Source: Ulota crispa (lineage: Eukaryota; Streptophyta; Bryopsida; Orthotrichales; Orthotrichaceae). Taken from it: a stretch of DNA of 64,000 nucleotides. The DNA is taken from contig OY987244.1 of the NCBI GenBank assembly GCA_963920765.1, positions 2,501-66,500 of the forward strand. The letters are read 5' to 3'. The position numbers were made by a program, and so were the translations under genes. The notes beneath the pieces are model-generated. The model made no database searches. It was given only the letters and a program-made list of their open reading frames with translations, and had not been told where the DNA came from. Below, one piece after another: positions 3,661 through 42,332 of this stretch (position 1 is its first letter; every line of letters begins with the position of its first letter).

Positions 3661-6560
3661 GAATTTTGTAGTTAGTTCCTAAAAACCCTTCAAGGATTGA
3701 TACTTGGTAAGAAGGCACTTTCAATATATAGCAATTTTCAACAATTCAATCATGTGATATTTGGAAGGACATATGCATATCATATGCATATTTGGAAATA
3801 ATCTTAATGACAAAGCAAGTGTGACAAACAAACTATCCAAAGTTCTTATATGATTATCTAAAATAGGCATGATTGCTGCTTACAATAAGTTCAAAATTCA
3901 TACAAAACATGGAGAGATTTCCAAATGTTCAATGACAAGATAATACATAATGATATGAGTAATTCATTAACAGATAAATATGATTTTTTGAGTTGCATTG
4001 AGCATCCTTTTATAATTTCACATAAAGCATTTATGACTCATAAAAATTTCAATTGCAAAATCAATGTCCTCCCAAGCTTATTAAAATACCAATCACTTGA
4101 ATTCCAAAAACACAAACGTTTGAAAGTTTGAGTCTAGTTTTGTATAATTACCAATTGTCAAAAATCACAATTATTTGGTTGCCACCGAACTCTATAATTA
4201 TCTTGATCAACTTCAATGAGATAATCTCTCATTTGAGCCCCTAAAAATCCAATTCACAAAACAAATTGGTTACTTGTAACCGTAGACTTAAAAAAACCAT
4301 GTACTTTTAAAAATGTATTCTCTTAAAAAAAGTTATAATAGAACTTACACACATTTAGAACACATTTTACACAATTTGAGTATAATTTTATCCTTTTATA
4401 CAGAATTAGAAGGTTTTCTAAGCATACAATACTAGACATTTTTATTTACTAACAAAATAAATAAAAATTGATGAAACTAAAACTTGATAACTTGCAACCA
4501 AACATTGAGAAAGTTTAGAATTGAATCTTTGACTTTGTGGTTCAAAGATTCACTTGTTGTTTTCACTACATTACTCATTTTAACAATGCAAATTTTTTTG
4601 AACAACAAAGAGATTTTAAAAGAATATGTGCTAGTATCATAGTATGCTAAAGTTAGAATTAAGCTAAATAGGATTTACAAATCTTTGATTCCAAGGATGA
4701 CCCTAAAAAAAGAAGAACAATGGTACTTGTGAAAAGTACTTGATTTAGAAGATATCTTAGATTTTTGGAATACCAATTTAAGCTTTAATCTGTTTTTTTA
4801 AAATTAAAACCTTCTGATTTTTTGAAAGTGATTGATATTCAAATAAATTTAGATTTTTGGTTTTAAGTTACATAATAGCATATTTTGGTATAAAGATTGA
4901 CCACAATTTTAGAGTTTGATTTTTTGGATTCTAATATTAGAACCAAGCCCTTTTTGTAAATCTTTTAGTTTTCCTTAAAAAATGTCATTAGAATGTAAAA
5001 GTCATTTTTTGATTTAATGTATTGTGAATTGAATATGCAATACGTGATATCAAAGTGGATAATGAATTCACTAATTAATTAGATACTCACTTCCAAGAAT
5101 AGACTCTCTTCGAGATGCTCTAATGTCTACTTCTATAGGGCTCAGGTGCAACCCATTAAAATCTTCTTCATCTTCTTGTATAGTGTTTGATAAAAGGTTT
5201 GAGCACAACAATAGAATATCTTCCTGTTAATAAAAGTAAACAAGCTAAAATATTAGGAATCTTGAAATTTATATATCTTTTTTAGTGTATTAAGAAAAGT
5301 GAATTTTTTTTGCTATGCATTGCTCTAAAAACAAGCAATAATAAACCAATGAGCCAAATAATGATAGATATTGGTTTATGTACAAATTGGTTAACAAACT
5401 CTATTTATTCCAATTATCTCTTTGAATTTTTCACTTTCATAAAAGTAATTTATTCCAAATTTTATAAGATTTTATCAATAGAAAAAGAGGAAATATAAAA
5501 TCCATCTATTAGTGTAAAGATACAAGTGCCATACAGCACAATTATTAAATTGTAAAAGTAATTCTCTATATTTTTTATCATGAACTACTGAGACTTGAAC
5601 ACCTTACACTTGAGTATTGGTTTAGGATTCTCTACTATGACTTTTTTTGAAGTGTCATTTTTAATACTATGTACTCAAATTGTAAATTCAAAGATATTTT
5701 TATGGACATTTCTTTATCATTTGATAAAGTATAAGTCTTTACTCTCCATTCTAGATAATTTCTAGGTTGAACCACTAAGCATTGAATTGGGTTCAGATGC
5801 CTTGAATCAAGCATTCCTTTCATGCAAAATGTGATACTTGGAAAATTGTCAAGTGGTGATGTTGTTGTGTCCTGTCATAATAATCACATACAATTGTATG
5901 TAAATTCTTTTATCAATAGATGACTTGTTCAAACAAGAATATTTAAATAAAGATAAGCAAGTCCCCTACTACTTAAACATATGTTCCATAATCATTTTAG
6001 TAAGTTCATACTAGTTGTTCATAGAAATTTCAACCCAAAATAATCAACTCTACACAATATATAAAACTCAATTAGTTCTTGTGTTTCAAGTGATTTCAAA
6101 TGCACATTGGATAATTATTTGCACACCAAGCATTAGCAAATAGATAAACATACTTTACAAGGCATTGTCAATGTGCTACTTTATTTTTCATAGGCACTAA
6201 TAATAGAGAAAAGTAGAATAGTAACAAAAAAAAATTTAGAAAATAAAACCTTACATTTATTGTGGAGTGTATGGAGTTGTATTTCTTAAGTAACATGCGT
6301 TACCTCTATAAAGTTGAGCCTAAATGAGCTCAAAAAAGGATAAAATATGTATGAAATCAAGAGCTTCTTCTACCCACCACTACCACTTGTTATGGCCTCC
6401 ATTTTATGTTGAGACTAACATGAAATCTTTTACATAATTATCCAAATTTTTGTCAATAGCACTTTGAACACCGTTTTATGGCTACCTCATGCAACTGTGC
6501 ATTAAGGCAATTTACATTTTATGAAGTACTTTTCTTAAAATGTCAAATATAAATAGTTAA
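3660..6560. other. AT-rich intergenic sequence, nothing recognised
   Basis: Low-complexity A/T-rich sequence with no ORF above 70 codons, no clear terminal repeats and no exon-like segment. It lies downstream of the last recognised protease exon on the minus strand, so a 3' UTR and polyadenylation region could be here, but no site can be fixed. Confidence 0.4.
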
Positions 6561-6572
6561 CATTCTCAATTA

Positions 6573-7466
6573 ACCCCTAAATGCCCAATGTACCAAATTT
6601 TAGTGTCCAAAAAATTTCAAGAAACTTTGAAACTATGTGCAAGGCGCAAATTTGAATATTTTTAGTTTTTTTTACTAGAGAAGTTCGGAGTTAAAGGTAG
6701 CTTTAGCGTTCAATTTTAGTTTCCTCCATATCTTATTCCAATTTTGTTTTGGTGGAAGCTAAATTGCAAGTATATGTTTTGTATCATGCATAGTGTCACA
6801 AAGCCTATGACAAGTTGCCACATTGAGAAAACAGATATCAAGTTGAGAAAAAAGTGAAGATTTCCCATGAGCACTCCCTTGGGTAGCAAGGGCCTGTTTA
6901 CTGAAATTGTGTCATTCAACAAAATCTAAAAGTACATTTGGACTAATTTCACTTGGAATGTCTTTGTTATAAAAATCAGCACTCATCCACCGCCAAATTT
7001 CCTTTCTTTCTTAATTACTAATGATCAATAATTAAAGCTTAAAAACTTATTAACATTAGGGATTTGTGCTTTGACCATTGCGTTGCAAGCTCATTTGTGA
7101 AACTGTGGTCATGAAATTGGAAGGGTTGCCATTAGTTTTCAAGCAATGATAAACACTAAAGCATTCTAAGTGGTTGTTTTCCAATTTTGTATCCAAAAGT
7201 TACCAGTTTGTTTAAGATGTTTTGGACAGCTCCATAAAAAGAAAGAAATTCCACACTCATCCACATTTAGTCACAAGTATCTTAAAATCTGCATGGCCAT
7301 TTTGGATTTATTTAGTAGCCCCATCTAGAAGCCTTGAAGTTTAAGATTTTATGGTTATAGTTTTACTTTGGTGTGTAATAATGATCATGCAAGGACAATT
7401 TAGAAACTTCAAAACTGCCTTACAGAAACAAGAACAGCACCCTTGGGCATTTAGGAGTTAAATTTG
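6573..7466. repeat. Inverted pair of TTAACCCCTAAATGCCC-type ends around the last protease exon
   Basis: TTAACCCCTAAATGCCC at 6573 is mirrored by GGGCATTTAGGAGTTAA near 7446-7462, each next to a TTA. The same terminal motif bounds other small elements in this window (10974-11222, 46168-46912, 49875-50799). The pair encloses the terminal protease exon, so the two ends more likely belong to two separate element copies than to one element carrying the exon. Confidence 0.4.
6716..6900 (-). CDS. Aspartyl protease terminal exon
   Basis: The acceptor is ACACAATTTCAG and the exon runs 2 nt plus 61 codons to a TAA stop (GGAGGAAACTAA). The product has LLPKGVLMGN (the family's IPPEGYLI-type segment), FLNLISVFS, LVIGFVT (the ILGD-type strand), then IYLQFSFHQNKIGIRYGGN, matching the family's terminal YDxxxxxIGW block. 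The final disulfide Cys of many relatives is absent. The start phase does not match the end of exon 8681-8794, implying an unfound exon between them. Confidence 0.78.
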
Positions 7467-7899
7467 ACTTTTGATGAATTGTTGACAATGGATAGTTGAG
7501 AAACTTTCTACATTTATTTAATTCTTTGATTATGCCTTCAGTGATATCAACACATATTTATTAAAATTAGATAGATACTCCTTGGCTCATTTTATATGCT
7601 CCAATGGCAAGAACAATGTAAAATTTGCCTCTTTTTATTTCCAATTAACCCTCAAAGGAACTTTGTAAAAAGATTGTATAGGTAGTATGGATATTGTATT
7701 CACAATGAATATGTAATAACTTTAAAACCATACACCATCTAAATGAAAAATCTTTCTATTGACTTTACAATGTTCACCAATATAAATCTAGGTGTTTATA
7801 ACTTATTCATATAGCATACACATTAACCCATCAATGCAGAGGCGGATGATTAATTGTCTGTTGGCTTTGAAAAACCATTATGTACAAGAGAAAAAAGTC

Positions 7900-8085
7900 A
7901 TTTGTTATTTGATTTTTTTTCAAATGTGATCATAAACACATGGTCCATCATGGAAGGCAAAAATTAATCTCATCAAACACACTCATATTTGTAAAATTGT
8001 GACAAGATGTTTATTATCATACTGCCCTTCTTGCAATTTTTATGAGGCCAACATGTATTGCTGACTTTTGTAGCTTTTAGGAACA
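7900..8085 (-). repeat. Dispersed repeat shared with 15870-16070
   Basis: Read on the minus strand, this segment (GGCCTCATAAAAATTGCAAG, then CAATTTTACAAATATGAGTG, then TTCCATGATGGACCATGTGT) matches the plus strand at 15870-16070 with the blocks in the same order. Both copies lie in introns of the protease locus in opposite orientation. Confidence 0.7.
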
Positions 8086-8680
8086 ATAGTACAAGCTAGG
8101 CACCTACCAAAGCACTATAGTTCTATAGGGCAAGATAGGCCACGGTTGTAAGTCCAAGGATTAAGGGATAAACATGCTTAGATGTGTTTGGTTTTTACTT
8201 GTTTACCATTATTTATTTATAGTTTACATAGCAATGAAAACCAGTAAATGTATAACAACAAGAATTCTTTTAGAAAACATCCAATGGAATATGACTTTGA
8301 AGGCATCTAATAGAGCTATTTGCAAGTTTGTGGTTTTCTAAACTTTAACAATTGCTTAAATGGTACATACGATACAATAACTAGCATCAAGAAAGTAGAG
8401 CATATGATCTTTACAATTGTTAGGTCCTATTCATCAAAATCTAAAAAGTTGCCTAAAGACCATATGTAGGACAATCTATAATCTTAGCAAATAAAAATAT
8501 TTGACGATCTTGAAAGTTAAGAAATCATTCCTAGAATTTTGCAATGAAAGATATCTCACTATTGCAAGGCTCTTTTTGCCACTTATTGCCCTTTTAGATG
8601 TTTAAGAAATAGTTTGAGATTCCCCAAAAAGTAACTCTTATACATTCTAGAACAAATAAAATTTGTAAGTATGTATGTAC

Positions 8681-8794
8681 CTTGGGGGCCAAATAACATT
8701 GTCTGCGATCTGATTCTTGAAAATTCCATTCAGTCTCGATCAAAGTATATCCTTTCTCCTTTGCATGAACATGAAGCTGCTTCCAAATGTTTGA
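8681..8794 (-). CDS. Aspartyl protease exon 6 (CYLAPK exon)
   Basis: A 38-codon exon in phase 0 at both ends, with donor CCCCAAG|GTACAT. The product includes LHVHAKEKGYTLIETEWNF and RRQCYLAPK. The position corresponds to the segment before and around the family's conserved Cys (LPxCW region) in the C-terminal lobe. The acceptor is uncertain: AAG at 8795 was chosen, and two other in-phase AGs lie 12 and 15 bases further in. Confidence 0.68.
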
Positions 8795-8926
8795 CTTACA
8801 TGTCAATTTGGAATATGTCACAAGACAAAGTGTAACGGTAACATAAAGGCACTTGTAATTTAGGGTTTAGGATTTAGGGTTTAAATTTTTTTATTCTATT
8901 TATATCAAATTCATAATAAATAAAGT

Positions 8927-9336
8927 GAATTGGTAAGGGTACACCCTAGGTTTGATATATGCACACCCCCTAGGAGGTAAATATTAGATTTTTACCATCA
9001 AAAAGCTGAATCTAAAAATCTTGAATTTAAATTTGGACTTAGAGACCTTGATTTTTAGTCTAGAATTAGAAATGAGTTTACAATTGAATAACACCCAATG
9101 AAAATGCTTAAGCTTTTTGACAAACAAAATCAAAAGTAATATTTTCCTCCTTAGCAAAGCTTTTTCATTAGGTGTTGTTCTATTGTAACCTCCAATATGG
9201 TTGTAGACTAAATCAAGGTTTCTGAGTCCAAATCTGAATTCAAAATTACTAGATTCATCTTTTTGATGGTAAAAATCTAAGATTTACCCTCGGGGGTGTG
9301 CACATATGAAACCCAGGGTGTGCCCTTATCAGTTCC
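8927..9336. mobile_element. Foldback MITE, copy 1 (TGCACACC family)
   Basis: Long imperfect inverted repeat. The left arm (GGTAAGGGTACACCCTAGGT, TATGCACACC, TTTTTACCATCAAAAAGCTG) is mirrored by the right arm (CTTTTTGATGGTAAAAATCT, GTGTGCACATATGAAACCC, GGGTGTGCCCTTATC). The middle carries AACACCCAATGAAAATGCTT and its inverse GCTTTTTCATTAGGTGTTGTT, so nearly the whole element folds. It has no coding capacity and sits in the intron between protease exons 5 and 6. Two relatives are at 36818-37220 and 40487-40746. No clear target duplication is readable here. Confidence 0.88.
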
Positions 9337-9416
9337 CCAAATTAATAAACTTTATTATCATTTCAACAAGCTTTGAATCTCATTATATAAAAGATAAAGA
9401 CAATGAAAGAATGTAC

Positions 9417-9570
9417 TTTCATAGAAACTTCATCATGGAACCAATCATCCAGACGTGTCATCTCGCTTCCGGTATCAAGGGCAAGAGGTAGACCACTTGT
9501 TGTAGGAGAGTAATAAGTTTTGCCGTCAAAAATAATATAGCTTAGTGTGGCATAAGTTGCACAATCAAAC
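9417..9570 (-). CDS. Aspartyl protease exon 5 (second catalytic Asp)
   Basis: The acceptor is TTTTTTTTGTAGAGTGCAG; one carried base plus 51 codons run to a donor ATGAAA|GTACAT. The product reads IIFDGKTYYSPTTSGLPLAL then DTGSEMTRLDDWFHDEVSM. In the ASP1/APCB1 group this position is FGGK...VVFDSGSSYTY...AY, so DTGS here is the second active-site triad. Asp and Gly are intact, with Thr replacing the usual Ser between them. Confidence 0.82.
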
Positions 9571-10369
9571 CTGCACTCTACAAAAAAAATAGCCTTCTTC
9601 AATGATGCTTGGACAAGGTCAATGCTCCAAGTGAAGAAAAAAAAGTTGACCATATTCAAGTATTGACAATAAAAAGAGGTTTCATTCAACTAGACCTAAA
9701 ACATAAAGATAGAAAGGAGATCTTGACATTATCCAAACTTTTCTCTTACAAAAGTGAGCTTATTCAAGCATCACTATAATTTGGGTGAAACATATAATAA
9801 CAAGAGCTACTTAAAGATTAACTCTTACTGTTTTTTTGACAAGTTTTCACAAAATCTATATAAAAACAATGACTCTTTTCTGAAATTATGAGAAACAATT
9901 ATAATGTATTGTTTTTCTACTTTTAAAAATGGTTTATAACAACAATTTGAATGGATTCTTGTTTCAATGCTAAACATCAAGAGGACTAATATACAACTTC
10001 TAACAAGTCCTTTACATTTTTTTATTAGGATGCTCAAATTGTTGAGTAAGATACCCTTTGACTGAAATTGACCAAGCTTTGAACTAAACATATTGTAATT
10101 GATAACATTGAGTAAATTTAAGCTTGATATAAATGAAATTGATGATGTCATTGAATTAAATATTATACCAAAATATCCACAAAAGACTCAATTAAAGACC
10201 TCAAAATGTTGCCAATAGCTCCTGATTTTTTTGTGGTATGTTGTAAACCATTTGTAATAAAATATGTTTTCATGATCATGGGAATTACATAGTTTTTTAA
10301 ATGGAATGAAACCAAAATCAATGGACTAAGTCATAGATCATTCCAAAATATTGTTTCCAAATAACTCAC

Positions 10370-10642
10370 CCTTCAGTGTTTGCTAGCTCAGCCCAACCAA
10401 AATGGTTTACACCAAACTTCTCTTGAAAATTAACACCAATAGTAACATAACCAATGTCAATTCTTGACAATAATAGTTGTCTTGACTTTGGTTGTCCTAT
10501 ACAAATCCCAATTCTTCTATTGGTTATAAGCTTTGATTTCATCCATTCACTTATGATTGTACTCTTACAAGTACCCAAACCAATGACTCCATCATCAATA
10601 CGTGATTTTATTTTTAAAGCAACAGTTTCTTCAGTTATGCAC
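10370..10642 (-). CDS. Aspartyl protease exon 4 (DDGVIGLG exon)
   Basis: A textbook exon: acceptor GTTGGATTTTCAG, 273 nt open throughout, donor GAAGG|GTGAGT. It starts one base into a codon, exactly completing the GG left by exon 3 to give VLG-CITEE, the family's FGCG position. Then come DDGVIGLG, STIISEWMKSKLITNRR (the SxxSQLxxxGLIxN helix) and ICIGQPKSRQLLLSRIDIGY (the GHCL...LFFGDD strand pair). No stops or frame breaks are seen. Confidence 0.85.
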
Positions 10643-10973
10643 CTGAAAATCCAACAAACATAAAAGGACTTAATTAATTAACTAAAACCATAGCATTGGT
10701 TATAAAGCTCAAATGTGAAGCGTATAACAAGTGTCCTTGTTTTGAAATCATTATTTTATAAAAGCAATTTTTAGATCATTAGCATGTTTCCTAAAATACA
10801 AGGTCCATCTCTATAATTGATTCCATTAAGGGAATTCCCCATACATGCCACTCATCTTGGATGCTAAATAATATATTTTCAACGTGCTAGGAACCAATAT
10901 TCTATGAAAAAAATTACAAAAGGTTAACATTGCATATGTAAACAATGATTTATTTTATATAGAAGGCTTGGGA

Positions 10974-11222
10974 TTAACCCCTAAGCATCACAACAAAGGT
11001 TTTTGGATCCGGACTTTGATAACACCTTAATCATCAAACTTTGTAATCTTCATATCTGTATGGTGGATTTCTACACAAACTATAGATTTGCACTTGTCAA
11101 GAAGTTGCCAACAAATATCTAGGATGGACATTTTAGTTGTTGCTTACACTCCAAGTTATTCCATTTTGTTTAGGATGCTCTCCCAAGCATGATGTTTTGT
11201 TTGTGACGCTTAAGGATTAAAC
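10974..11222. mobile_element. Short MITE with TTA-flanked terminal inverted repeats
   Basis: The left end TTAACCCCTAAGCATCACAA is mirrored by TTTGTGACGCTTAAGGATTAA at the right, about 20 bp with few mismatches. TTA flanks both ends, consistent with the 3-bp TTA duplication of PIF/Harbinger-type elements. The interior has no ORF. It lies in the intron between protease exons 3 and 4. Confidence 0.65.
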
Positions 11223-14020
11223 ATTTGGTGCTTTTAGAAATTTGGGCATGTGACCATACATTTGGACCTTGAACTATTGAAAAGACCAAAAAACCACGAC
11301 AACCCTAAATAATTTGTATGAAATTTATGGTCCACAAATACATAAAATTGCAAATACAACAAAATAGTCAAGCTTTCTAAATGTTTTCAGAAATAGCATA
11401 TGATTGTGCATAAAATACCAATGCAAAAACATATTTGGCATGCTGCAAAATCTCAAAACTGAATGATTTTATTTCAAGCATTGCAAAATTGAATAGTGAA
11501 ATTCTGTGTATATTAATATCATTATGGACAATCTAGTTTTGGTAAAACACATTAATTCAATTAATAGTTAGTTGATAAGTTGAATTGGAAATTTCATAAA
11601 CACAATGAAATAAAAGCTTCATAATCATGTTGTTCATATCAGTTATGTAACTCTCATTATTTTAGAGATAAAATGATATTTTCTTTGGTCTAATTTACTT
11701 TGAGTATTGCAAATTCTTATATTTGTATATGTCACAATTTTGTCTAATTCTAAAATTAGCTCGCAAGCCGTGAGAGGCATAATTTCAGCTTCTAATATTT
11801 TCAAGCAAGTTCTAGTACCCAAATATGGCTTTGAATAAATTTGAGGAAATTTGAGGAAATTTGATAATTATAGTGCTCTACATGTCAAAGTTTGTATAAT
11901 GCAATTTTAATAAATATTGCAAAATTTAATGATTATTCTTGTATGTTATTTTATATCAAATCTCATAGTCGGTACCTAAAATTGTCACTTTATCAAAAAA
12001 TAAAAACCAATTTTGGTAAGATGCACACATCTTTAGTATATAAGTTTTGAATTGTTTTATTTTTATTACTATGATATGAATCCACAAGATTTATTTTTTT
12101 GCACCAACAAATTGCATTAGCAAGAGAACTTCACATATAGCATTGTTGTATGGTATTTGGTATGCACAAATTTCCAAATAGAAAACCAAAAGAATTACAA
12201 ATGTAACCTAATACAATGTGGTGGGAGTTGACATTACTTAACCCTTTAGAGACCATTGAACCATATTTTGGTGCAACAGAGTGGTTTTTAACCCGTATAG
12301 TAAACCACTCAATAATTTGAAAATTGGTCTTGCAAAACACATGTGTGCACAAGAATCTTGCATCCAACTAAACAAATAACAATGGAATTGGGTATGTGAG
12401 CTGACAAATAATGATGGTTATACAACACAACCTCAAAATATGCATCCATTTTTGGTCAAAAATGAATCAAAGCAACAATGCAATACCTCAAATATCCAAT
12501 AATGATTTCATATCTCAATTGCACAATCCAAAAAAAAATTCAAGCTCCCTAAGAAATACGCTCATATAATTTCTCTCTATGGTACTAGATTGTAGTATTT
12601 GAAGATCTATTGAAATGGTGTTGTCATTTCATCTCTTAATTTTTCATCCATGGGAGGCCAATTTGTCATTGTTTTCACCAATCATATTCTTCATGGCATT
12701 TATCATATTTTCTATAGAATTATTTTTAGATGGTAGCTAAAGTGGGATACTTGACCATTTTTCTCCACTTAGCTACACCTTGTGATTGCTATTTTTATCC
12801 ATTTTGTGTGAAACTAGTCTCATTGAAAAGGTGTGGAAGTCCACTTTCTAAAAGTATAAGGTTCTTTTCAAGCAAAGCTCACATGAAGCAATAACATCCA
12901 AAATTACACAAGCATGAAAACTACAGATTTTTCACTTATGACATACTCAATCATCATAATGTTTCATTTTGAATTGTAGATCTAGTTGAAATCTTCTCAA
13001 TTTATAATAAGTAAGGTAATCTTTCCATTCATACAATTGGACTATTCAAATTGGGTCCAAATTTGATTGAATTGCACATCTAAGTTCACCACTATTGTTG
13101 CTAGTGGATTTTGAGAAAATGGGTATGGTCTTTGGTTAACTTCAGGCTAGAGTTACATACAAATTATGTGTCCTTCCTATTCTATATCTCCTTAAGCTTC
13201 ATTTCTTTATGAGACAATCACAAATTTTATTTGTCTCACTCTTTTGTGTGTTCTTTAACCCTTTTTCCATTTTTTTCTTTCAAAAGGCACAAAGTTGTCG
13301 AAGACATAAATTTGTGTACAAAAAAATGTGAAAGACAAAATTTCACTTTTGGAAGTGGCTGCAAACAAACTTGTTTTTAAACTTTGAGCATTATGATCTT
13401 GCAACTACAAAATTTGTTTCTGTTACTCATTTATTGCATCCCGCATTAATAGTGCTAATTTGCACTAATCCAAATAGTATATGAATAATTTGGAAGGCAC
13501 CTTACAAAAGTAGTTTGTAGTAATTTAGATTAACTCAATAAACTATGGACTACAAAATTTGATTACTACCTCAAAAAGCATGAGTCAAGTGGCCAAACTT
13601 TTGAGAAGATATAGCAAGCATGTATCTCAATTGAACAGAGTGTGTGAAAAATGTTCCATTATAGGAAAGGTGTCACCATGTTGTTGCTTGACAAACAACA
13701 AAAATTTGTGATCAAAACTTTACTTGGAGGATAAGGGCAAGCAACATATCACACCTTCACACTAACTAGACAAAATTCACCAAAACTAAAGACTAGTGAA
13801 GGGGTCTCTCATTTTTCAATGTCTCACACTAAGAAAAATAACTTGTGTAATACCAATTTGTTCTTAAAATGAGGGGTGTATTTAAACAAACTCACCAAAA
13901 TATCCAATCCTCCAATTAGATCCATCAGAAACTTATTTAGAAAAAGCTGGAGGTTTTAGCCTTGCTTTTGGGCGGAAAAGAGTATTTCAAAAATAGGTTA
14001 GGACTCAAAACATTATACCC
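11223..14020. other. Intron sequence, AT-rich, nothing recognised
   Basis: Bulk of the 3.7-kb intron between protease exons 3 and 4. Only short ORFs and a tiny local duplication (GAGGAAATTT twice near 11840) are visible, with no terminal repeats or exon-like segment. Confidence 0.5.
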
Positions 14021-14024
14021 TAAA

Positions 14025-14252
14025 CAACCAAACAACCATAGGGGATAGTATGTGTGGTGCCGTGTAACTCATTTGCTACCAACAAATAGTTTTAAATTGG
14101 AATCTTGACTAGGTCACTAAAATCGCATTGATCTATATATTAACTTCTTTGCTGATCTCAAATATAGTAATTGTGTGGATGCATTCCAAATACAAGAAAA
14201 AGACATTGTATTGTACTGCTTGCTACAGCATGCTCACACATTCAAGGGCTAA
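14025..14252. repeat. Diverged MITE-like repeat related to 27424-27695
   Basis: Shares a run of blocks with 27424-27695: TTAACTTCTTTG, GATCTCAAATATAGTAA, GTGTGGAT, a TACTGCTTGCTACAGCATGC segment and the terminal ATTCAAGGGCTAA. The right end is degenerate, and the left end is not clear. Confidence 0.55.
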
Positions 14253-14313
14253 TTTTGAATTGTTGTTAATAGTGTAGAAATTGAAATACATACATAGTGT
14301 GTGTGGCAATTAC

Positions 14314-14561
14314 CCAAGTACTCCTTGCCCCTTCACTTCCATTTTGTCTGAGGTTGGCAATGTGAAGCTCTCTTGAATATAAGTACCCTTGTATTCTGAC
14401 CCGTCTGTATATATAATCCATACTAAGCATTCAAAATTGTGATGAGCATTACATGGTATACCCTGTCCATGATGGGGTTGATGCACGTGGCATAATGTTT
14501 GGTCTTTTCCATTACACTTTATTAATTTCATATTCCTCGGCTTAAAGTATCCATGTGGTCC
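14314..14561 (-). CDS. Aspartyl protease exon 3 (flap exon)
   Basis: The acceptor is TGTAATGATGTAG and the donor CTTGG|GTAATT; 82 codons plus 2 nt, phase 0 at the start. The product begins GPHGYFKPRNMKLIKC, matching the family's KGPHxLYKPxxxxxVxC segment that also opens an exon in relatives. It continues with ECLVWIIYTDGSEYKG (the CDYEVxYADGSSSxG flap) and SFTLPTSDKMEV. The flap Tyr is conserved. No stops. Confidence 0.84.
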
Positions 14562-15177
14562 CTACATCATTACAGTTAACATCATTTCCATTGACCCCAA
14601 AAGGCCCAAGTTCTTTTTTTTGTAAGAGACATTAAAAACTGCCAGTTTTAGGGGAATGGGTAGAAAGGAAGGAAAAAGTTTGTTTTTGAAATTTAACCAT
14701 AGAATCTTGCCCTAGATTACAAGAGGTATTTTTGGGAAAAAACTTTAGTTCATTTTAGATAGAGAGGAGTGAGATATTGACACCTAAAGTGAAGAAAATA
14801 GTTTTTTCCCTTCTTGCCCAAAAATTTCAGAAGCCTTTGACCACCTTTATAGCAAAAGAATTGCTGTGCACAAAGTTGAGATTTGATTATGCAAGGTAAA
14901 TTGACCAAGTTAGGTATGTGTAGGAGAAATTTCAAATGAGTTGGAGGTGTATAACATACTTCAAAAAACCTTTAAATGCCAGAAGGTTGTAAATTTTGCA
15001 AATACATGAAGCAAAATTGGAGGATTTATGTAAAATTCAGTAGTTCGAATTACATGGATCCAAACAGTGAAAACCAAGATATCCTAACCCACTAGAACTT
15101 GGAAAAAGAAATGAAAGAACAAATAACACCATATTTGATAATTTGGGAAAAAGGTGTCATTTTGGGACTTTTGCAGG

Positions 15178-15197
15178 TTGTACATGATCATGTACAA
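15178..15197. other. 20-bp perfect palindrome TTGTACATGATCATGTACAA
   Basis: Exact inverted symmetry with no loop, in the intron between protease exons 2 and 3. No neighbouring repeats give it a context. Confidence 0.5.
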
Positions 15198-15684
15198 TTG
15201 AGCTAGTAGCGTTTTTTTTTGGCACGTGCCCTCACTTGAGAGGAGGAATATGCAAGGGAATAAATCTTAATGGCTTGGAGTGAATCTGATACCTTCAAAT
15301 TTGATTCATTGTGACTATTCTAGATCAAGGTGAATACAAATGGGACTACTGATATTCCCAAATTAACAAATATGGTGTTAAATACACAAATTGCTCAAAA
15401 ATGTAAATTACCAAATTTTACAAGAGGCAAAAGGAATGGAGGTAGGGAGTCTCCCAAAAAGAGCCCCTTCCACTCCAAATCCCATTTGCCCAAGTGTCCA
15501 CATCTTGTGCCCACAGATTGGAGCTCACATTCTTTGGAGTCAAAACTCACTTACAAAAGAGAAGCCTTGCCCAAATTGCCCCTTCTCCCCTAGTTTTGCT
15601 GAATTCTTGCACAACTTCTTTGTTAAAAGTTGGAATGAAGAAAAAATTAGATGGCCACAAAGGCATTTGAATTCCCATTTTGTT

Positions 15685-15765
15685 TGATTAAAGTTTCAAA
15701 AAATCACACAAACTAGTTTAGCAGTAGGAACATGCCCAAAATCCCACTTGGCCCCTAATGGGCCA
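15685..15765. repeat. Solo right end related to the 46.2-kb foldback
   Basis: AAAGTTTCAAAAAATCACAC, a TTTAGCAGTAGGAACATGCCC block and AAATCCCACTTGGCCCC match the last ~70 bp of the foldback ending at 46912. No matching left arm was found nearby. Confidence 0.65.
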
Positions 15766-15869
15766 CATGGGGCTTTTAGAGGATAACTTGTGAATGGCCA
15801 GCTAGTCATAATGTTTGCTCCTCTATAGAGCTCCACAATGATTTGGCAAGTACCCACCAATTATAATGC

Positions 15870-16075
15870 TATTTTTAAAAATTGTAATAGTCAACATTGC
15901 ATGATGGCCTCATGAAAATTGCAAGAAGGGCAATATGAGACCTAACACAATGTTTTTGAATTTTCTCACAATTTGGGTTATCCAAAATCATGAGTATATT
16001 TGGTGAGGTTGTTTTTTGCATTCCATGATGAATCATGTGTTTATGATCTCTTACAAAAAATTATATGAAAAATGG
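15870..16075 (+). repeat. Dispersed repeat shared with 7900-8085
   Basis: GGCCTCATGAAAATTGCAAG, CAATATGAGACC, TTTGGTGAGG and TTCCATGATGAATCATGTGT follow the same order as the minus strand of 7900-8085. Confidence 0.7.
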
Positions 16076-16853
16076 CATTTTTTTGTTTTGCAGATTTTTT
16101 TGTCATGCAATGGATGAAAAACGTCCCCTCAACATGTAAGAATCAAAAGTGCACATGATGTTTACAAAGTGCTCTTATTGTTTCAATAAAAATGTATATG
16201 ATGCTTTTAAAATACTATCATCTTTGCGAAAGCAAAGCCAAAATTGCCACAGTTGCTAACACATTCACAAATCTTTTATACTTTACATACAAACATATAG
16301 TGAGAAAAAAAAGGATTTATTATCTATAAACACAAGAGTAAAAACTAAAAATTAAAAACCTTTGCTTTTAGACCTAGAATCTAGTATTGTTATAAAAGCT
16401 AAAAAACATTAATTGTTTAAAATATTTGCACTAGGTCTTTGAAGCCTTGCAAAGAGTTGTTTATGACCTCCATGAAATGCTTTAAAAAGTTTGTATTTTA
16501 TTTCTTTATTCATTACAGATGTATTGTAAATTCTCATATTAAATACAAGGTATTGCTATTGCCACCCCAATCAGATGTTTTTGCAAGTAACACCACACGT
16601 CCACTACTCTCTTCACCAATTTTTTGCTCAATGATTTTTTTCTCATGGAGGTTGACACTATTGGTAAGTCTCAATTATGACAAGATAGTAAGGTTTGACA
16701 ATAAGTTGCAAGCATGGTCATACAAAACTGAAGAAAACAAATAGACCATAAACCCTCAAAGTAGCATTTTCTAGTTGAACACTCTTTCACTTTGTTCTTT
16801 TTACTTTGATACAAGGTCACAAGTTGAGAATGTGCATTGTAGTGGGTTGGCAA

Positions 16854-16981
16854 CACTACAAGAAAAACTATGCGCAATGACACATCCAAATTGACAAAAA
16901 CATGTCCAAATTGATAGAAAAGTGTCCAAATCAAGGTGACCTAATTGATAGAGAATGTCTTGACACTGCTCCCTTGTAGTG
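16854..16981. mobile_element. 128-bp miniature CACTA element, intact ends
   Basis: Starts CACTACAAGAAAAAC and ends CCCTTGTAGTG, a 9-bp terminal inverted repeat of the canonical plant CACTA (EnSpm) type. A 3-bp CAA duplication flanks it exactly (16851-16853 and 16982-16984). The interior has three spaced copies of TCCAAATTGA/TCCAAATCAA, the kind of subterminal motif CACTA transposases bind. It has no coding capacity and lies in the intron between protease exons 2 and 3. Diverged relatives are at 24732-24868 and 48991-49099. Confidence 0.9.
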
Positions 16982-17161
16982 CAAGTTGTGGTGATAATAG
17001 AAAATCATTTGAATGACATGTGATGTCACTAACAAAAAGAATGTTAATTGAGATAGCTATAGCAAAAATTGTGGTCACAAGAGCAATACCTACATACAAG
17101 CTATAATTTCAATATAGGTGAGTATTGTAATAGTTACTAGTGATATAAGAGAGGGACAAAC

Positions 17162-17291
17162 TAGATTTGTAATATCTGTCTTGCGGCCAGGAAGTTTGCA
17201 ATACACCTACGTGTCATCACTTGCAGTGTCAATATCAAAATTAAACAACTTTGCTTGGATCCCCAATTTCATCTCAATGTAAAACTTTTCC
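17162..17291 (-). pseudogene. Aspartyl protease exon 2 (first catalytic Asp) with TAG and DTAS
   Basis: The acceptor is AAATGCATCTTAG; one carried base plus 43 codons run to a weak donor CTA|GTTTGT. The reading is KFYIEMKLGIQAKLFNF then DIDTASDDT, a TAG codon, then VYCKLPGRK. The family consensus at this point is YYVxLxIGxPPKxFxLDIDTGSDLTWVQC, so the TAG replaces the Trp codon (a single TGG to TAG change) and Ala replaces the Gly of DTGS. Catalytic Asp, Thr and Ser are kept. The phase joins exon 1 to give YSH-K-EKFYIE. Without the TAG the exon would be open. Confidence 0.85.
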
Positions 17292-19205
17292 CTAAGATGC
17301 ATTTCACAAAGGAGCTCAAATTAGTGAAGATGTCACGAATCAATGTAAGCTACCACTTGTACAATAATTCATTTTAGCAAACGTGACTTTTATGAATAAA
17401 TAAGTCAAATAAGCAATTTGGATAAATAGGGTGAAATATTGAATTTTTTGTAAGGTGATGCTCTCACCAAGGTCAAGAAATTGTGCACAAGGGCATTTGT
17501 TCAAATTTTAGAGTCAATTCACATTACAAGGAAAGGTTATCAAAACTTGTCACTCTCTGGATATACACATGCTCTCAAACATCATCTCAAGCATTTATCA
17601 TAATAAAAGTACAATAGAAATATGTTTCATTTTCTATAATATGCAAAGGTCTTGAGATTATACTTAGAAGATTTTGTTTTTCCTAAAAGAGATAGAATGA
17701 AGGAGGAAACTAGCCAAATTAATTGAGATTTCAACTACCTCTAAAGGGCCATTTATTTCATTTAAACACCAAAATTATTTGTATTAAAATTTCCTTTAAC
17801 AAACTTTGACTACATTCACAAGCAACGTATTTGCCTTCCATTCCTGGCTGACCAAATTTTGGAATTGTGGTCTTGTCAACTCTTGTTTTTTTGAGCATTA
17901 GATATATTCATCAAATTTTGGCCATCATTCTTACACGCAAACGCCTTAGAGTTAATTTTAGAAATTTAATCAACAAATGGCAATGATTTCCATTGTTTTG
18001 AGCTCCAACACTATTTTGAGCTTTTAATCTAGAGTAAGCCATAGTTGCCTTGCATAAGTGATGCTACTAAATGAAAAAGCATATTCTACATTAAATGCTT
18101 CAAAAACTATAACACTTAATGACTTGATTTTTAATTTTTTAGTTCCAATTGCATACAATGACTTACATTCTAAGTTCATTTCTCTCACTCTTGTTTACAA
18201 AAAAGTTTTAGTGAAGTAAGTTTTACCTACTATTGACTCAAACTAAATGTCAACCCTTTCTTTCTAAATAAAAATTTGAACCATGCAATATCCAAATTGA
18301 TGAGTAGTATATAGGTGACACTTTTGTAGAGCTAGTGACCGTTTTGGAAACTGAATACACATTTTTGATACTATGGAAAAAGGCAACTTTGCAATGGAAC
18401 AAGTTGTAATATAATTCCTTTCAATTTGCCCGTCTTTTTTATCAATAACATTTTGATGTCATGAACATCTATGTCAAAATGCATGAAATGAATTTTGGAT
18501 TCATCCAAGTTTCATTTACAATATCCCTCAATACTCACCTTCCAAAATTCACTATTGATTCATTACACCTTCAAAGTTTATACAATTGCTTGCATTTTTC
18601 CTCATGAACATATGCCAATGTGCAAAAGTTGTTGTTGTTTCTCTTGCATGTTAGATGGCACCATAAATGTACATGGTGGTACTTTCAACATCATTCAAAA
18701 TAGGCTTGAGCAATGTCCAAGGAGGTTTTGAGTTTCTTTGAAAAAAATCATACATTTTTCATTTGTGACCAATTTTATTCATTCATACTCACCGTAGTGC
18801 TTGTATTAGGAAAATGCACAAATGGCAACCTCTCTTCAATAGCGTCCCTATAATTAGCTAAATAATGGATATGAAGTGGTCTTTTAATGAACCTATGTTA
18901 TGCATTGAAAGAATAGAAGAAAAAGTGTATTTTATTGCAAAAGCCAATCATATTCCTTGATTTTACCTCATCTCTTTACAAGTTGCAAGTGAACAATTTT
19001 TAAGAGACCAATAAGTCACAAATGGGTGCCTATTACAAAAAAACTTAAATTCATCAGTGACTCAATAATGCTTCAAAAAACATGAATAAAATTGTACTAT
19101 ATTTGGCATCTATTTTTTTTGTTTGAAAATTAGACAAAAAAACTTCTTGTTTCAAAAAGCCCATGAAAAGGTAAAGGAGCCCTTAAAGTGTTGCTTTTTG
19201 AACAA
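17292..19205. other. Intron sequence, nothing recognised
   Basis: AT-rich 3' part of the 3.4-kb intron between protease exons 1 and 2. It contains only short ORFs; no terminal repeats or exon-like pieces are seen. Confidence 0.45.
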
Positions 19206-20092
19206 ATTAGTTTATTATACACTACCCAATAGAAAGTACATACTCCCCTTTTAAGGCATTCAAGGAAGTTTGCTTAATACAATACTTAACTGGCATTTTA
19301 TCCTCAGGTTTTTTGTATGTGATCCTTGTGCAATCATGATCAAGCACATCAACTTTTAATCACTAAAAACCAAAATCCTATTTTTGGCAAAAATTTTGAG
19401 TCAAAATCATGGTTTTACAACAAAGTAGATAAGAAAACATTGGCGATGAATTTTTGAGATTTGATTGCATGGATACATTGGAGACATCCATATGCACATA
19501 CTTCTTTCAAGCAAACATCTCCAAAAAATTTCCAAGAAAATTCTATAAATATTTTAATGTTAGGGTGATCATTACCAAATATAGTACAATATGTATTTCT
19601 TCATGAAAGTTATTTTTTGGCATGAGATTTGTACATTGTGACTAAGTTTGTGCCTTTAAACATGATGATATGTTTATTTTGCCAAGAAACTAATTTCTAT
19701 GTAGAAGTATATGCTTTACAAAATTTGGTCCAAAAATTAAAATATTTGTAAACGATTTTTGGATTTTTTTTGGAAATGTTTGAATGAAATACGGATATGC
19801 ATATGGATGTCTCTAGCATATCCAAGCAAACAAATCTCAAAAAGTCATTGCCTATGGTTTTGAATCAACTTTCTTGGAAAACCATGATTTTGATCCAAAT
19901 CAATCTACCAAAAATAGGATTTTGGTTTTTAGTGACTGAAATTTGGTATGCTTGATCATGATTGCACAAGGATCACATACAAAAAAGTTAAGGATTAAAT
20001 GCTAATTATGTTTTGTGTTAAGCAAATTTCTTTGAATTTTTTGAAAGGGAAGTATGTAGATTTTCTTTAGGGTACTGAACTATTAATAAACA
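19206..20092. mobile_element. Foldback element, ~885 bp (GATTGCATGGATA family, copy 1)
   Basis: Two long arms mirror each other. The left has AGTTTATTATACACTACCC, TGTATGTGATCCTTGTGCAA, then CATTGGCGATGAATTT and GATTTGATTGCATGGATA. The right has the inverses, ending GGGTACTGAACTATTAATAAAC. The centre (about 19540-19760) is unpaired and AT-rich with no ORF. The same arms occur at 25537-26394 and, as half a copy, at 35535-35910. The element sits in the intron between protease exons 1 and 2. Confidence 0.9.
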
Positions 20093-20652
20093 TTTTCCAC
20101 AAATCTAACCCAAATTTTATTGAGTGACTCATACTTCAACCAATTTTTTTGACATTTCAATTGCCTAACTTTCTATAGTTTTTTGGATCTCCTTACTCAA
20201 TTGGGTTTACACAATTTCCAAAGTTTTTAGAATTATCCAAGCACATAATAGTGAAAGTGGGTTAAGTTAAAGTTGGATGATGCTATTTTGTGAGCAAAAA
20301 GCAATGAATTCCTGAGCGATGAGCCAAGATTTGTGAGCAGTAACCAATTTTGAACTCAAAATCAATGGAAAAATATAAAAAAATAGCAAATTTTTTAAGA
20401 GATGAATATTTATAATGAACTGTTATAAAGCTTGAACTACAATTTTATAGGTGAACTTAATTATTTTGACAAGAAAATTAGGCTCATGGCTAACCAGTCA
20501 TGGATCCTTGCTCACAATTTAGCATTTCCCAATCAAAGTCCACTAACCTTAATTCAAACAACGGATGTGATAATATCCTACGTCTCCTATCATTTGCTCC
20601 ACTGCCTTGATGCCACGTCTCATCTTGGCTTCCATTTAAAAACTGAATGTAC

Positions 20653-20825
20653 TTGTGACTGTACAAGGGAAACACAAGTCCTGACAATGTCCTTGGTGGA
20701 AGGTCACTACTTGATACAACTTGTTTGGAGCTCCATACAAAAATGAGGATGGCAGTGCTGAACCCCACAAGGGCAATTACCAATATGAAATTCCGGCCTT
20801 CCAACTGTTCAAAGGACGTGGAACT
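20653..20825 (-). CDS. Aspartyl protease N-terminal exon (membrane segment and FPLY)
   Basis: The acceptor TGTTTGTTTGCAG follows a strong pyrimidine tract; 57 codons plus 2 nt run to donor CACAA|GTACAT. The product has NFILVIALVGFSTAILIFVW, a 20-residue hydrophobic segment fitting a signal anchor or transmembrane helix, then SGLVFPLYSHK, the conserved (S)xVVFPLYG segment just before the protease fold in ASP1/APCB1-type enzymes. Phase 0 at the start means at least one upstream exon carries the start codon; it was not located. Confidence 0.78.
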
Positions 20826-33230: not shown

Positions 33231-35445
33231 ACTCCCACTTTGCAAATGGCTGAAGTTTCTAATATTCATAGCTCTTGTCAAACGCTCATATCTATTCCTC
33301 GCCAACGCCTTTGTCCTCACATCTGCCAAGATGTTCTAAGTTTGGCAATACTCCAATGTGATGCTTCCTTCTTCACCTTCTCTTTCACAAAATGGTATTG
33401 CACCTCAATGTGTTTTGTTTTTGCATGGTGCACTAGATTCTTGGTAAAAGTTATGGCACCTTGATTATCACACAAGATCAAGATATTCTCCATGTCCTCA
33501 TACTCCACATCCTCCAAGAACTGCCTTAGCCATGTAGCCTCTATTGTACAATAGTTTGCCGCCATGTACTCTGCCTCCTTTGTTGATAAAGCCACCATAG
33601 ATTGTTTTTTGCTACTCTATGACACCATATCCTCTCCAAGGCTAAATGCATAATCTATGGTGGATTTTTTATTGTTGGCTTTGCCAATCTAATCAGCATT
33701 GAAATACCTGATCAAGCATATGTGTCTTCTTAATTGCAACTTCACATGAAAAGTACTCTTGAGGTACCTCATGATTCTCTTCATTGCCATCCAATGACTC
33801 CATCTTAGTCACGCCATGTATTGACTCACCGTACTAATGACAAAGGTCAAATTGTCCCTTGTAGTCACCGTGGCATACATCAAAGATCCAACTGCTGATT
33901 TATAAGGTATACTTACTATCTTCAAAGCATCCATATCATACTTCTCCATGCTAAGCTTTACAAACTTCACATTGGTGTCCAATGGAGTATCAATGGATTT
34001 GCAATTTTCCATGCCAAACCGCTTGAGTACCTCTTTCATATTCTTGGCTTGGCTCATCCTGATGCTCCTTGCACCTTGAGCTCTCGCAAACTCCACTCCA
34101 AAGCTGTAGTGCAACTATCCCAAGTCCGTCATCTTGTACTCTGCCTGCAACTTAACTTTCAATGCACCCATGGTCTCTACATTGCTAGTGAAAATATTCA
34201 AGTCATTAACATATACAAACACAAGTATCACATGAACTCTCATTTATACAAAATACAAACTATGATCAATTACACTCTTCTCAAAACCAAAATCTAAAAG
34301 ACTTGCATTAATCTTTAGATAACATGTCTTCGATGTTTGTCTCAGCCTATACAAAAACTTTGTAAACTTGCAAACAAGGTCTTCATAATCACATTGCATA
34401 AATCCTTTGAGTTGCTCCATGTAGATGTTTGTCTTTCAAATTGCCGTTGAGGAAGGCCATCTTCACATCCATTTAGTGCATTTCTAAGTACAATGATGCT
34501 CTAAAGACCACAACACACCGTATGGTGGTGAACTTGGCCACCAGAGCAAAAATCTTGTAGAAATCTACTCCTTAGCTTAACATATTTTCCTTGCCACCGA
34601 CCTTGCCTTGTAGCGTACAATCTCCCTCGTGACATCTCTCTTGGTTTTGAACATCCATTTGCATCCCACCGTCTTGCGAGATGTAGGAAAGATGGTCAAC
34701 TTTTAGGTGTAGTTGGCATGGAAAGAGTGGTATTCTTCTTCCATGGCTGCCTTCCCTTTGCTTGCATTCCGAGACTTCAAAGCCTCTTTAAATATAGTGG
34801 GTCATGAACAATGACTACATTAGCATGATCAGAATTGAAAGATGGTTGAAAAAAGATGGGTTTCTTTTACCACTCTTCTGAAGGCTTGCTTACTTTTGCA
34901 GATCGCCGCACACCTCTCATATAATGGCTATCTCCCACTTTAGCGCTTGGCGTAATGCCTTGTGCTTTCTTCTTCTTTGTGACCTTTTTGGATTTAAAAC
35001 CCTCACCACCTTGACTTGCACTTGTATCTTTTATAAGGTCACCAACTCCATCCTCAAACAGATGATCTTTATCATCTCCATTATCATCATTATCATCGTC
35101 ATATAAGAGTGTTAGAGGTGTGTTTACAACAAGGTCACTACTGCTTCTACTTGGACCCAACTCCAACTCCTTTTGCAAATTTTCATGCTTGTAAAAGGTC
35201 ACATCACAACATTGAATGATCTTCTTAGACTCCAAACAAATCAGCATAAATGCTTTGGAGCCCTCACAATATCCCAAAAAGAAACACCTCACCGCCTTTG
35301 CATCAAACTTGGTCTTCGATGCATCGGAGATCTTGGCATATGTAACACCTCCAAACATCCTAATGTGTGTCACTAACGGCCTTCTTCTATTCCAAGCCTC
35401 TTTTGGAGTCTTGCCATTTATCGCACAAGTTGGACATTGATTGCA
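33231..35445 (-). mobile_element. Ty1/copia retrotransposon fossil, 5'-truncated
   Basis: Minus-strand remnant of a Ty1/copia LTR retrotransposon. Parts in element order: C-terminal integrase (about 35.44-34.87 kb, with HIRMFGGVTYAKI and RCFFLGYCEGSKAF), reverse transcriptase (about 34.7-33.8 kb) and RNase H (about 33.6-33.3 kb, with STKEAEYMAA and HIEVQYHFVKEKV). A purine tract and a probable LTR start follow near 33231. Gag, protease and the front of integrase are absent; sequence upstream of 35445 changes to foldback-type repeat. The element is broken, with several interruptions, and looks old. Confidence 0.93.
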
Positions 35446-35534
35446 AATATATAGTACTCTTGCATATATACAAGTTCAGCCCATTCTACCATTCCAAAAA
35501 CTTAGCATTTTACAAAATAGAATTGGCAATTTTG

Positions 35535-37226: not shown

Positions 37227-37426
37227 NNNNNNNNNNNNNNNNNNNNNNNNNNNNNNNNNNNNNNNNNNNNNNNNNNNNNNNNNNNNNNNNNNNNNNNNNN
37301 NNNNNNNNNNNNNNNNNNNNNNNNNNNNNNNNNNNNNNNNNNNNNNNNNNNNNNNNNNNNNNNNNNNNNNNNNNNNNNNNNNNNNNNNNNNNNNNNNNNN
37401 NNNNNNNNNNNNNNNNNNNNNNNNNN
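37227..37426. other. Assembly gap, 200 N
   Basis: Exactly 200 undetermined bases, probably a fixed-size placeholder. Apparent ORFs across it are artefacts. Confidence 0.98.
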
Positions 37427-41150: not shown

Positions 41151-42332
41151 CACTAGTAGAAAACTCCGTCCAAAACAATAGAAAACCAATAGTTTCTAGT
41201 TGATTTGGGCACTTGCCCACACTAGTTGACTAATTTAACCGAATTTTGTAAAAAACTAAATACGTCCTGTTTGATTGGACACCATTATCTAAATCTACAA
41301 AAAATTTGGAATCTTTTGGAAATCTTTTGGGAATTTTTTGTGAATCTTTAAGAATATTTAAGAATCTTTTAAAAATCATTGAGAATCTTTTCAAGATTTT
41401 TAAGAATATTTAAGAATCTTTTCAAGATTTCAAAATGTTTGAGAATCTTTGAGAATCTTTGAGAATCTTTGAGAATCTTTCAGGAATCTTTGAGAATCTT
41501 TTGAAATCTTTGGGAATCTTTTCAAGTTTTTTTGGAATCTTTGAGAATGTTTGAGAATATTTGTGAATCTTTGAGAATCTTTGAGAATCTTCTTGGAATA
41601 TTTGAGAATTCTTTAGAATCTTTGAGAATAGTTTGGAATATTTGAGAATCTTTGGAAATGTTCTAGGAATTTTGAAATTTTTTGAGAATTTTTGAAAATC
41701 TTTAAGAATCTTCTTAGAATCTTTGAGCAAGTTTGAGAATCTTTAAGAATCTTTGGAAATCTTTGAGAATCTTTTTGAAAATTCTAAAAATCTTTGAAAA
41801 TCTTTGAGAAATTTCAAGAACCTTTTTGGAATCTTTGAGAATCTTTTTAAAATCTTTATGAAATTTGTTAAAGTACTTCAAAATATTTATAGAAATTGAA
41901 TTTCTTAGACTGAATTAGAGTCCTTTAGGAATCTTTTTGTAATTCATCAAAATACTTTGAAATATTTTTAATAAAAAAACTATTACAATAGTTTAGGTTT
42001 GTTTTTGAAATCTTTCTAGAATTTTTTTGGACCTCATTAAAATGCTTTGAAGTTTTAAAACATAAAAGAAGTTTTAATAAAAAATAGAATCTTTTAGAAG
42101 TTTGAGTGTACATTGACTGGTTTTATTTTCTTTACTTTTCACAATTTGGTTAGATTTAAAATTAGCAGCCTTTAAAGTCAAGTAAAAACATGACCATAAT
42201 AACAAAAAAATCAATAGAAAATCAACATACTCTTGTTGAAAAGTACCCAAATCAACTTGACCAAATCAGCAGAAAAAATCAACAGTTTTTGGTTGAAATT
42301 CTATTGATTTTGTGCTAAATTTTCTACTAGTG
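41151..42332. mobile_element. Non-autonomous CACTA element, 1182 bp
   Basis: Starts CACTAGTAGAAAACTCC and ends AATTTTCTACTAGTG, about 13 bp of terminal inverted repeat in the plant CACTA form. CCA flanks both ends (41148-41150 and 42333-42335), the 3-bp duplication expected. Subterminal motifs such as ATAGAAAACCAATAG and TTGATTTGGGCACTT recur inverted near the right end. The interior is a decamer array (41290-41870) and AT-rich filler, with no transposase ORF. Confidence 0.92.
41290..41870. repeat. Array of ~10-bp units, core GAGAATCTTT, inside the CACTA element
   Basis: Dozens of GAGAATCTTT and near variants (GGAATCTTT, AAGAATCTTT) in one orientation, spacing about 10-13 bp. A 102-residue minus-strand ORF made of FSKILKDSQRF-like repeats comes from the array and is not a gene. 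Confidence 0.9.

What the first reader, a model, noticed from the sequence alone, without database searches (positions are those of the whole stretch)
6716..20825. Seven-exon aspartyl protease gene recovered from scattered short ORFs, nearly intact except one exon
Exons found by motif and splice signals join in phase at five consecutive junctions (20653/17291, 17162/14561, 14314/10642, 10370/9570, 9417/8794), which is very unlikely by chance. Family knowledge (plant A1B proteases, ASP1/APCB1 type) gives the expected motif order. The only visible damage is concentrated in one exon.
Basis: partly seen in the sequence, partly recalled or inferred. Interest (0 to 1): 0.85.

Follow-up and report, generated by a model that had tools for sequence, protein, structure and literature searches.

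The report
Decayed plant aspartyl protease gene
This stretch holds the intron-containing remains of a plant membrane-type aspartyl protease gene, broken by a stop codon next to its first active site; it is an ordinary kind of gene relic, though its reading frame is better kept than its key residues.

Summary
The scattered minus-strand ORFs do belong to one gene. Exons 2-4 in the join match Pfam TAXi_N (N-domain of plant pepsin-like proteases) at E = 5.8e-16, 59.6 bits, cut-off 30; three joins of other ORFs from the same stretch match nothing up to E = 10. The resulting eight-exon model (1293 nt, seven GT/AG introns of 637-3671 nt) has one internal stop. Damage is not confined to one exon: a TAG at 17209-17207 follows DTASDDT directly, DTG reads DTA, two cysteines beside it are gone, family motifs in exons 3 and 4 are eroded, no TAXi_C match exists, and the PE-YL/VCLGIL region was not found. 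Best reading: an unprocessed pseudogene of an APCB1-type plant protease. Mild oddity: the frame is better kept than the hallmark residues. Interest low.

The parts
20653..20825 (-). exon 1: membrane helix (FILVIALVGFSTAILIFVW) and start of the protease domain (SGLVFPLYSHK); ends in phase 2
   Evidence: Kyte-Doolittle 2.69 over 19 aa; acceptor GTTTGTTTGCAG, donor GTACATTC; no Pfam hit of its own
17162..17291 (-). exon 2: first catalytic motif, DIDTASDDT*VYC (DIDTGSELTWIQC in the recalled APCB1)
   Evidence: TAXi_N profile 1-33, E 0.029 alone; best place in the 64 kb, both strands, for the DTGS query
17207..17209 (-). in-frame TAG stop in exon 2, where the recalled APCB1 has Trp
14314..14561 (-). 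exon 3: GPHGYFKP...CNGKDQTLC...ECLVWIIYTDGS...GVLG
   Evidence: TAXi_N profile 48-110, E 0.002 alone
10370..10642 (-). exon 4: (G)CITEE...DDGVIGLG...IGICIG (GCGYDQ...DGILGLS...VGHCL in the recalled APCB1)
   Evidence: TAXi_N profile 131-166, E 0.11 alone
9417..9570 (-). exon 5: second catalytic motif, PLALDTGSEMTRLDD
   Evidence: second-best place in the 64 kb for the first-site DTGS query (9488; residues); in-phase junctions; no Pfam hit, and the second-site query did not rank it in its top 5
8681..8779 (-). exon 6: QLHVHAKEKGYTLIETEWNFQESDRRQCYLAPK (starts 8794 or 8776 also in phase)
   Evidence: in phase 0 with exon 5; matched to LPICW by eye only; no TAXi hit
5091..5223 (-). tentative exon 7: EDILLL...RRESILG, phase 0 in, phase 1 out (acceptor TTTTATTAACAG, donor GTGAGTAT)
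   Evidence: open and in phase on both sides; ILG joins the last exon without a gap and raises the score with 4 of 4 queries; only its last residues are supported
4158..4240 (-). probable terminal exon: (R)AQMRDYLIEVDQDNYRVRWQPNNCDF and TGA
   Evidence: best ungapped place of the 64 kb for the APCB1 C-terminus (42; next 35); 0 of 500 shuffles reach 42; against: see text
8916..9346 (.). foldback (inverted-repeat) element inside intron 5
   Evidence: arms 8916-8974/9288-9346 (80%) and 8957-9054/9210-9307 (84%)
19228..20067 (.). larger foldback element inside intron 1
   Evidence: arms of 160 nt (84%) and 170 nt (79%)

Best explanation
An unprocessed (intron-bearing) pseudogene of a plant A1B aspartyl protease of the nucellin-like/APCB1 type, on the minus strand from about 20825 to 4158. 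The working ancestor would have been a membrane-anchored pepsin-like protease: a membrane helix in the prosegment, then a two-lobed protease domain with two catalytic Asp motifs. Here translation would stop at the TAG in exon 2, right after the first catalytic loop, leaving a membrane-anchored stub with no C-terminal lobe and no second Asp; the transcript would be a candidate for nonsense-mediated decay. Skipping exon 2 (130 nt; exon 1 ends in phase 2, exon 3 starts in phase 0) shifts the frame and gives no bypass. Shown: family match, exon order, phases, stop codon, changed residues. Inferred: membrane insertion, fate of the transcript, loss of function, plant host. The species is unknown.
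For: TAXi_N at 5.8e-16 for the six-exon join and 1.6e-15 for the eight-exon join; still 4.5e-12 when exon 2 is cut before the stop and joined to exons 3-4 only (46.9 against 59.6 bits). One internal stop in the 1293-nt eight-exon frame, against 25 and 39 stops in the other two frames. DTG reads DTA, QCDYE reads ECLVW, GCGYDQ reads GCITEE (hallmarks as quoted in PMC9937552). Introns of 3361, 2600, 3671, 799, 637, 3457 and 850 nt. No TAXi_C match in any join tried, although the recalled APCB1 sequence hits it at 1.2e-15.
Against: Few lesions: in simulated neutral decay of the six exons with 0.1 indels per substitution (my assumption), at most one stop and no indel has probability 0.0235 at 3% divergence and 0.0015 at 5%, so the loss is recent or the frame is still kept. 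Exons were chosen because they are open, which biases this. No transcript data and no relatives were available to test loss of function.
Confidence: 0.78

Rival explanations
1. A working, fast-diverging APCB1-type gene whose TAG is an assembly error or a rare allele; the unfound part of the C-terminal half lies unrecognised in an intron.
For: The 1293-nt frame is otherwise open with usable splice sites at seven introns; both catalytic Asp are present; the last Cys is followed by Asp, Phe and a stop.
Against: DTG to DTA, two neighbouring cysteines lost, QCDYE and GCGYDQ eroded; no place found for the PE-YL/VCLGIL region; no TAXi_C match.
Confidence: 0.14
2. A catalytically dead paralog kept for another use, for example as an inhibitor-like or truncated membrane protein.
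For: Frame kept better than catalytic residues; seed plants have a group of A1 proteases without canonical active sites (PMC9937552, abstract).
Against: The TAG would remove everything behind the first motif; nothing here shows expression.
Confidence: 0.05
3. Chance ORFs strung together by a reader who knew the motifs.
For: In-phase GT/AG junctions are easy to find (9-24 GT x AG pairs within 30 nt). Four of 9 motif queries do not rank their expected place in the top 5 of the window. The largest of 60 shuffled queries beats the observed spliced score. The C-terminal spliced-pair scan is not unique to this place.
Against: Pfam 5.8e-16 over three exons in order, while 3 of 3 control joins hit nothing. 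Five of 9 motif queries rank first or second in the whole 64 kb at collinear places.
Confidence: 0.02

Closest known systems
Arabidopsis APCB1 and relatives (A1 aspartic protease group II-A, nucellin-like)
   Same: Membrane helix before the protease domain; order of both catalytic motifs; 6 of 12 cysteines aligned by script; C-terminus ILG-x-x-x-M-R-x-x-L-I-x-x-D-x-x-x-x-R-x-x-W-x-x-x-x-C
   Different: In-frame stop, DTA for DTG, neighbouring cysteines lost, QCDYE and GCGYDQ eroded, part of the C-terminal half unfound, no TAXi_C match
Pfam TAXi_N family (N-domain of plant A1B pepsin-like proteases and xylanase inhibitors)
   Same: 59.6 bits over profile 1-166 of 176, cut-off 30
   Different: Far weaker than the recalled APCB1 sequence (164.2 bits)
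Unprocessed pseudogenes of plants with long introns, such as conifers
   Same: Introns retained, some several kb, with repeats inside; long introns and repeats in introns are described for Picea glauca (PMC4108047, abstract and passages)
   Different: The species of this window is unknown; conifer origin was not tested

Membership tests
A1B aspartyl proteases (TAXi_N/TAXi_C) | TAXi_N domain above the gathering score | tested here: met
   59.6 bits, cut-off 30, E 5.8e-16; 58.1 bits for the eight-exon join
A1B aspartyl proteases (TAXi_N/TAXi_C) | TAXi_C domain | tested here: not met
   No hit up to E 10 for 4 C-terminal joins and a full join or for the final C-terminal and full joins
active A1 aspartyl protease | two D-T/S-G motifs in an open frame | tested here: not met
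   First is DTAS followed by a stop; second is DTGS
nucellin-like / APCB1 (group II-A) | acidic-hydrophobic-DTG-S-acidic first site (definition quoted in PMC9937552) | tested here: inconclusive
   DIDTASD: 6 of 7 positions fit, G to A
nucellin-like / APCB1 (group II-A) | QCDYE and GCGYDQ between the first DTG and GILGL (the same passage says these are not conserved even in nucellin itself) | tested here: not met
   ECLVW (1 of 5) and GCITEE (2 of 6); GVIGL for GILGL
nucellin-like / APCB1 (group II-A) | membrane helix in the prosegment | tested here: met
   19 aa at Kyte-Doolittle 2.69 in exon 1; hydropathy only, no topology program was used
nucellin-like / APCB1 (group II-A) | twelve protease-domain cysteines | tested here: inconclusive
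   6 of 12 aligned by script (233, 263, 281, 320, 365, 568; the numbers 365 and 568 come from the recalled sequence); 471 and 275 matched by eye only; 237, 240, 278 absent; 525 not found
processed (retro)pseudogene | no introns | tested here: not met
   Introns of 637-3671 nt between exons 1-6

The most novel reading that the evidence does not exclude
The locus passed through a long phase as a catalytically altered, frame-constrained paralog (hallmark residues lost while about 1.3 kb stayed open) and was truncated by a stop only lately, or is still expressed as a membrane-anchored stub with some non-protease role.
Probability: 0.12. Interest if true: 0.35.

Novelty: new member of a known kind. 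Interest (0 to 1): 0.14.

Why it matters
Mostly as annotation: it corrects where a plant APCB1-type relic ends and which exons are real. It is also a small case in which reading by eye found a true gene across some 16 kb of long introns but misplaced its 3' end. If relatives showed long constraint before the stop, it would be a modest example of a protease that lost its catalytic hallmarks before losing its frame.

Tried and rejected
Against four C-terminal queries it scores 17-26; the best segment of shuffled DNA averages 29.5-32.7 (100 shuffles per query).

A second protease copy further along the minus strand, suggested by stray motif hits at 42734, 56533 and 59432: spliced alignment of 36-64 kb gave only incoherent, frameshifted fits; rejected as chance.

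The unfound middle of the C-terminal half: candidates at 7010-6915 and 5761-5636 were looked at; none stands out, and low-intron-cost alignments take different, unconvincing paths.

Results against the terminal exon: with the junction left free, other places score as well or better (61.4 at 12349 against 55.2 at 4167 for intron cost 8; 49.2 at 42669 against 48.5 for cost 12). As a single segment it is the best of the observed segments for 2 of 4 queries, with scores (44, 32) that the largest shuffles also reach (44, 46). The final C-terminal join has no Pfam match. It rests on the ungapped scan, 0 of 500 shuffles, its place and strand, the stop just behind the Cys, and the in-phase join.

PDB by sequence: the joined relic finds no protease (2 weak unrelated rows). 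Rfam at gathering score: no match; tRNA: none. Own genome: not held, so copies elsewhere were not counted. I did not run the search for related loci, search_dna_similar or structure prediction: the collections are of prokaryotes, plasmids, phages and virus contigs. Paper searches were seen as listings; only PMC9937552, PMC5349150 and PMC4108047 were opened, for abstract and passages.

Full report
What is there. Their join hits one Pfam family, TAXi_N, at E = 5.8e-16 (59.6 bits, cut-off 30; profile 1-166 of 176). Exons 2, 3 and 4 hit it singly at 0.029, 0.002 and 0.11, in the right order. Three joins of other ORFs from the same stretch, two on the minus and one on the plus strand, hit no family up to E = 10. 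In a scan of 9 motif queries from a recalled APCB1 sequence over both strands of the window, 5 rank first or second at collinear minus-strand places: 17242, 14561, 14432, 10596 and 4241. The second place for the first-site DTGS query is 9488, which is the DTGS of exon 5. The other 4 queries do not show their expected place in the top 5. So the gene is real; chance is excluded for exons 2-4, while exons 1, 5 and 6 rest on motif, phase and position.

A weaker test. Spliced alignment to the recalled sequence scores 65.6 (exons 3-4 only at that setting), against 46.8 +/- 4.7, largest 60.6, for 60 DNA shuffles. Of 60 shuffled queries the largest reaches 70.1; the reversed query gives 55.1; the opposite strand 46.0; eight other stretches and strands 39.3-60.2. 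This alone would only be suggestive.

The 3' end. The best ungapped place in the window for the APCB1 C-terminus is at 4241 on the minus strand (42, next 35); 0 of 500 shuffles of the 8.7 kb downstream of exon 6 reach 42. Reading 5223-5091 | 4240-4158 gives ...ESILG-R-AQMRDYLIEVDQDNYRVRWQPNNCDF-stop, in phase with exon 6. It aligns without a gap to the recalled APCB1 and to EDGP, basic 7S globulin and beta-secretase fragments; adding the upstream piece raises all four scores (47 to 55, 30 to 37, 24 to 34, 23 to 31). Against it: with the junction left free, other places in the window score as well or better; as a single segment it wins for only 2 of 4 queries and within the reach of shuffles; and the final C-terminal join has no TAXi_C match. 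I hold the terminal exon as probable and 5223-5091 as tentative. The region that should carry PE-YL and VCLGIL was not found.

Which family. PMC9937552 (abstract and passages seen) describes APCB1 as a nucellin-like protease of group II-A with a membrane helix in a long prosegment. Exon 1 has such a helix (Kyte-Doolittle 2.69 over 19 aa). The recalled APCB1 sequence agrees with all ten cysteine numbers printed in the passages. By script alignment 6 of its 12 cysteines are kept here; two more match by eye. APCB1's part in cleaving BAG6 in fungal resistance is from PMC5349150 (passages seen) and says nothing about this copy.

Damage. A TAG at 17209-17207 follows DTASDDT directly; DTG reads DTA; cysteines 237 and 240 are gone; QCDYE reads ECLVW and GCGYDQ reads GCITEE; no TAXi_C match. 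The recalled APCB1 scores 164.2 bits for TAXi_N, this copy 59.6. Exon 2 is 130 nt, exon 1 ends in phase 2 and exon 3 starts in phase 0, so skipping exon 2 breaks the frame. Introns of 637-3671 nt between exons 1-6 exclude a retrocopy. Introns 1 and 5 hold foldback elements.

Tension. The eight-exon frame of 1293 nt has one internal stop. Simulated neutral decay of the six-exon join gives P(at most one stop and no indel) = 0.0235 at 3% and 0.0015 at 5% divergence, and P(at most one stop) = 0.098 at 10% (the indel rate of 0.1 per substitution is assumed). Loss at the quoted hallmark motifs looks much heavier than a few per cent. Either the protein diverged while still read and broke recently, or the choice of open exons hides damage, or both. 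Without relatives I cannot separate these.

Verdict. An ordinary unprocessed pseudogene of a known plant protease family, better delimited than before; interest low.

Noticed in passing
34867-35475 (-): ORF of 202 aa with the retroviral polymerase SH3-like domain (Pfam PF25597, E 3.3e-19), so part of a retroelement; Ty1/copia-like by recalled look.
   Followed up: partly
19228-20067: Foldback element with long imperfect inverted arms (160 nt at 84%, 170 nt at 79%) in intron 1 of the relic.
   Followed up: partly
8916-9346: Foldback element about 430 nt long in intron 5, arms 80-84% complementary; its end motif, with up to 3 mismatches, occurs only at its own two ends in the window.
   Followed up: yes
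7916-8094 and 15861-16060: Two inverted copies of a repeat (75-80% alike) in two different introns of the relic; not identified.
   Followed up: no
363-1312: Minisatellite of about 20-nt units (TTTATTCATCCATACACCCA), with long plus-strand ORFs in three frames, up to 291 codons; most likely a repeat, not a gene.
   Followed up: no
41305-41864 and 43941-45031: Further degenerate tandem arrays, units such as TTTGAGAATC and TGCCCTCCTATCTCAG.
   Followed up: no
37227-37426: Run of 200 unresolved bases (N).
   Followed up: no
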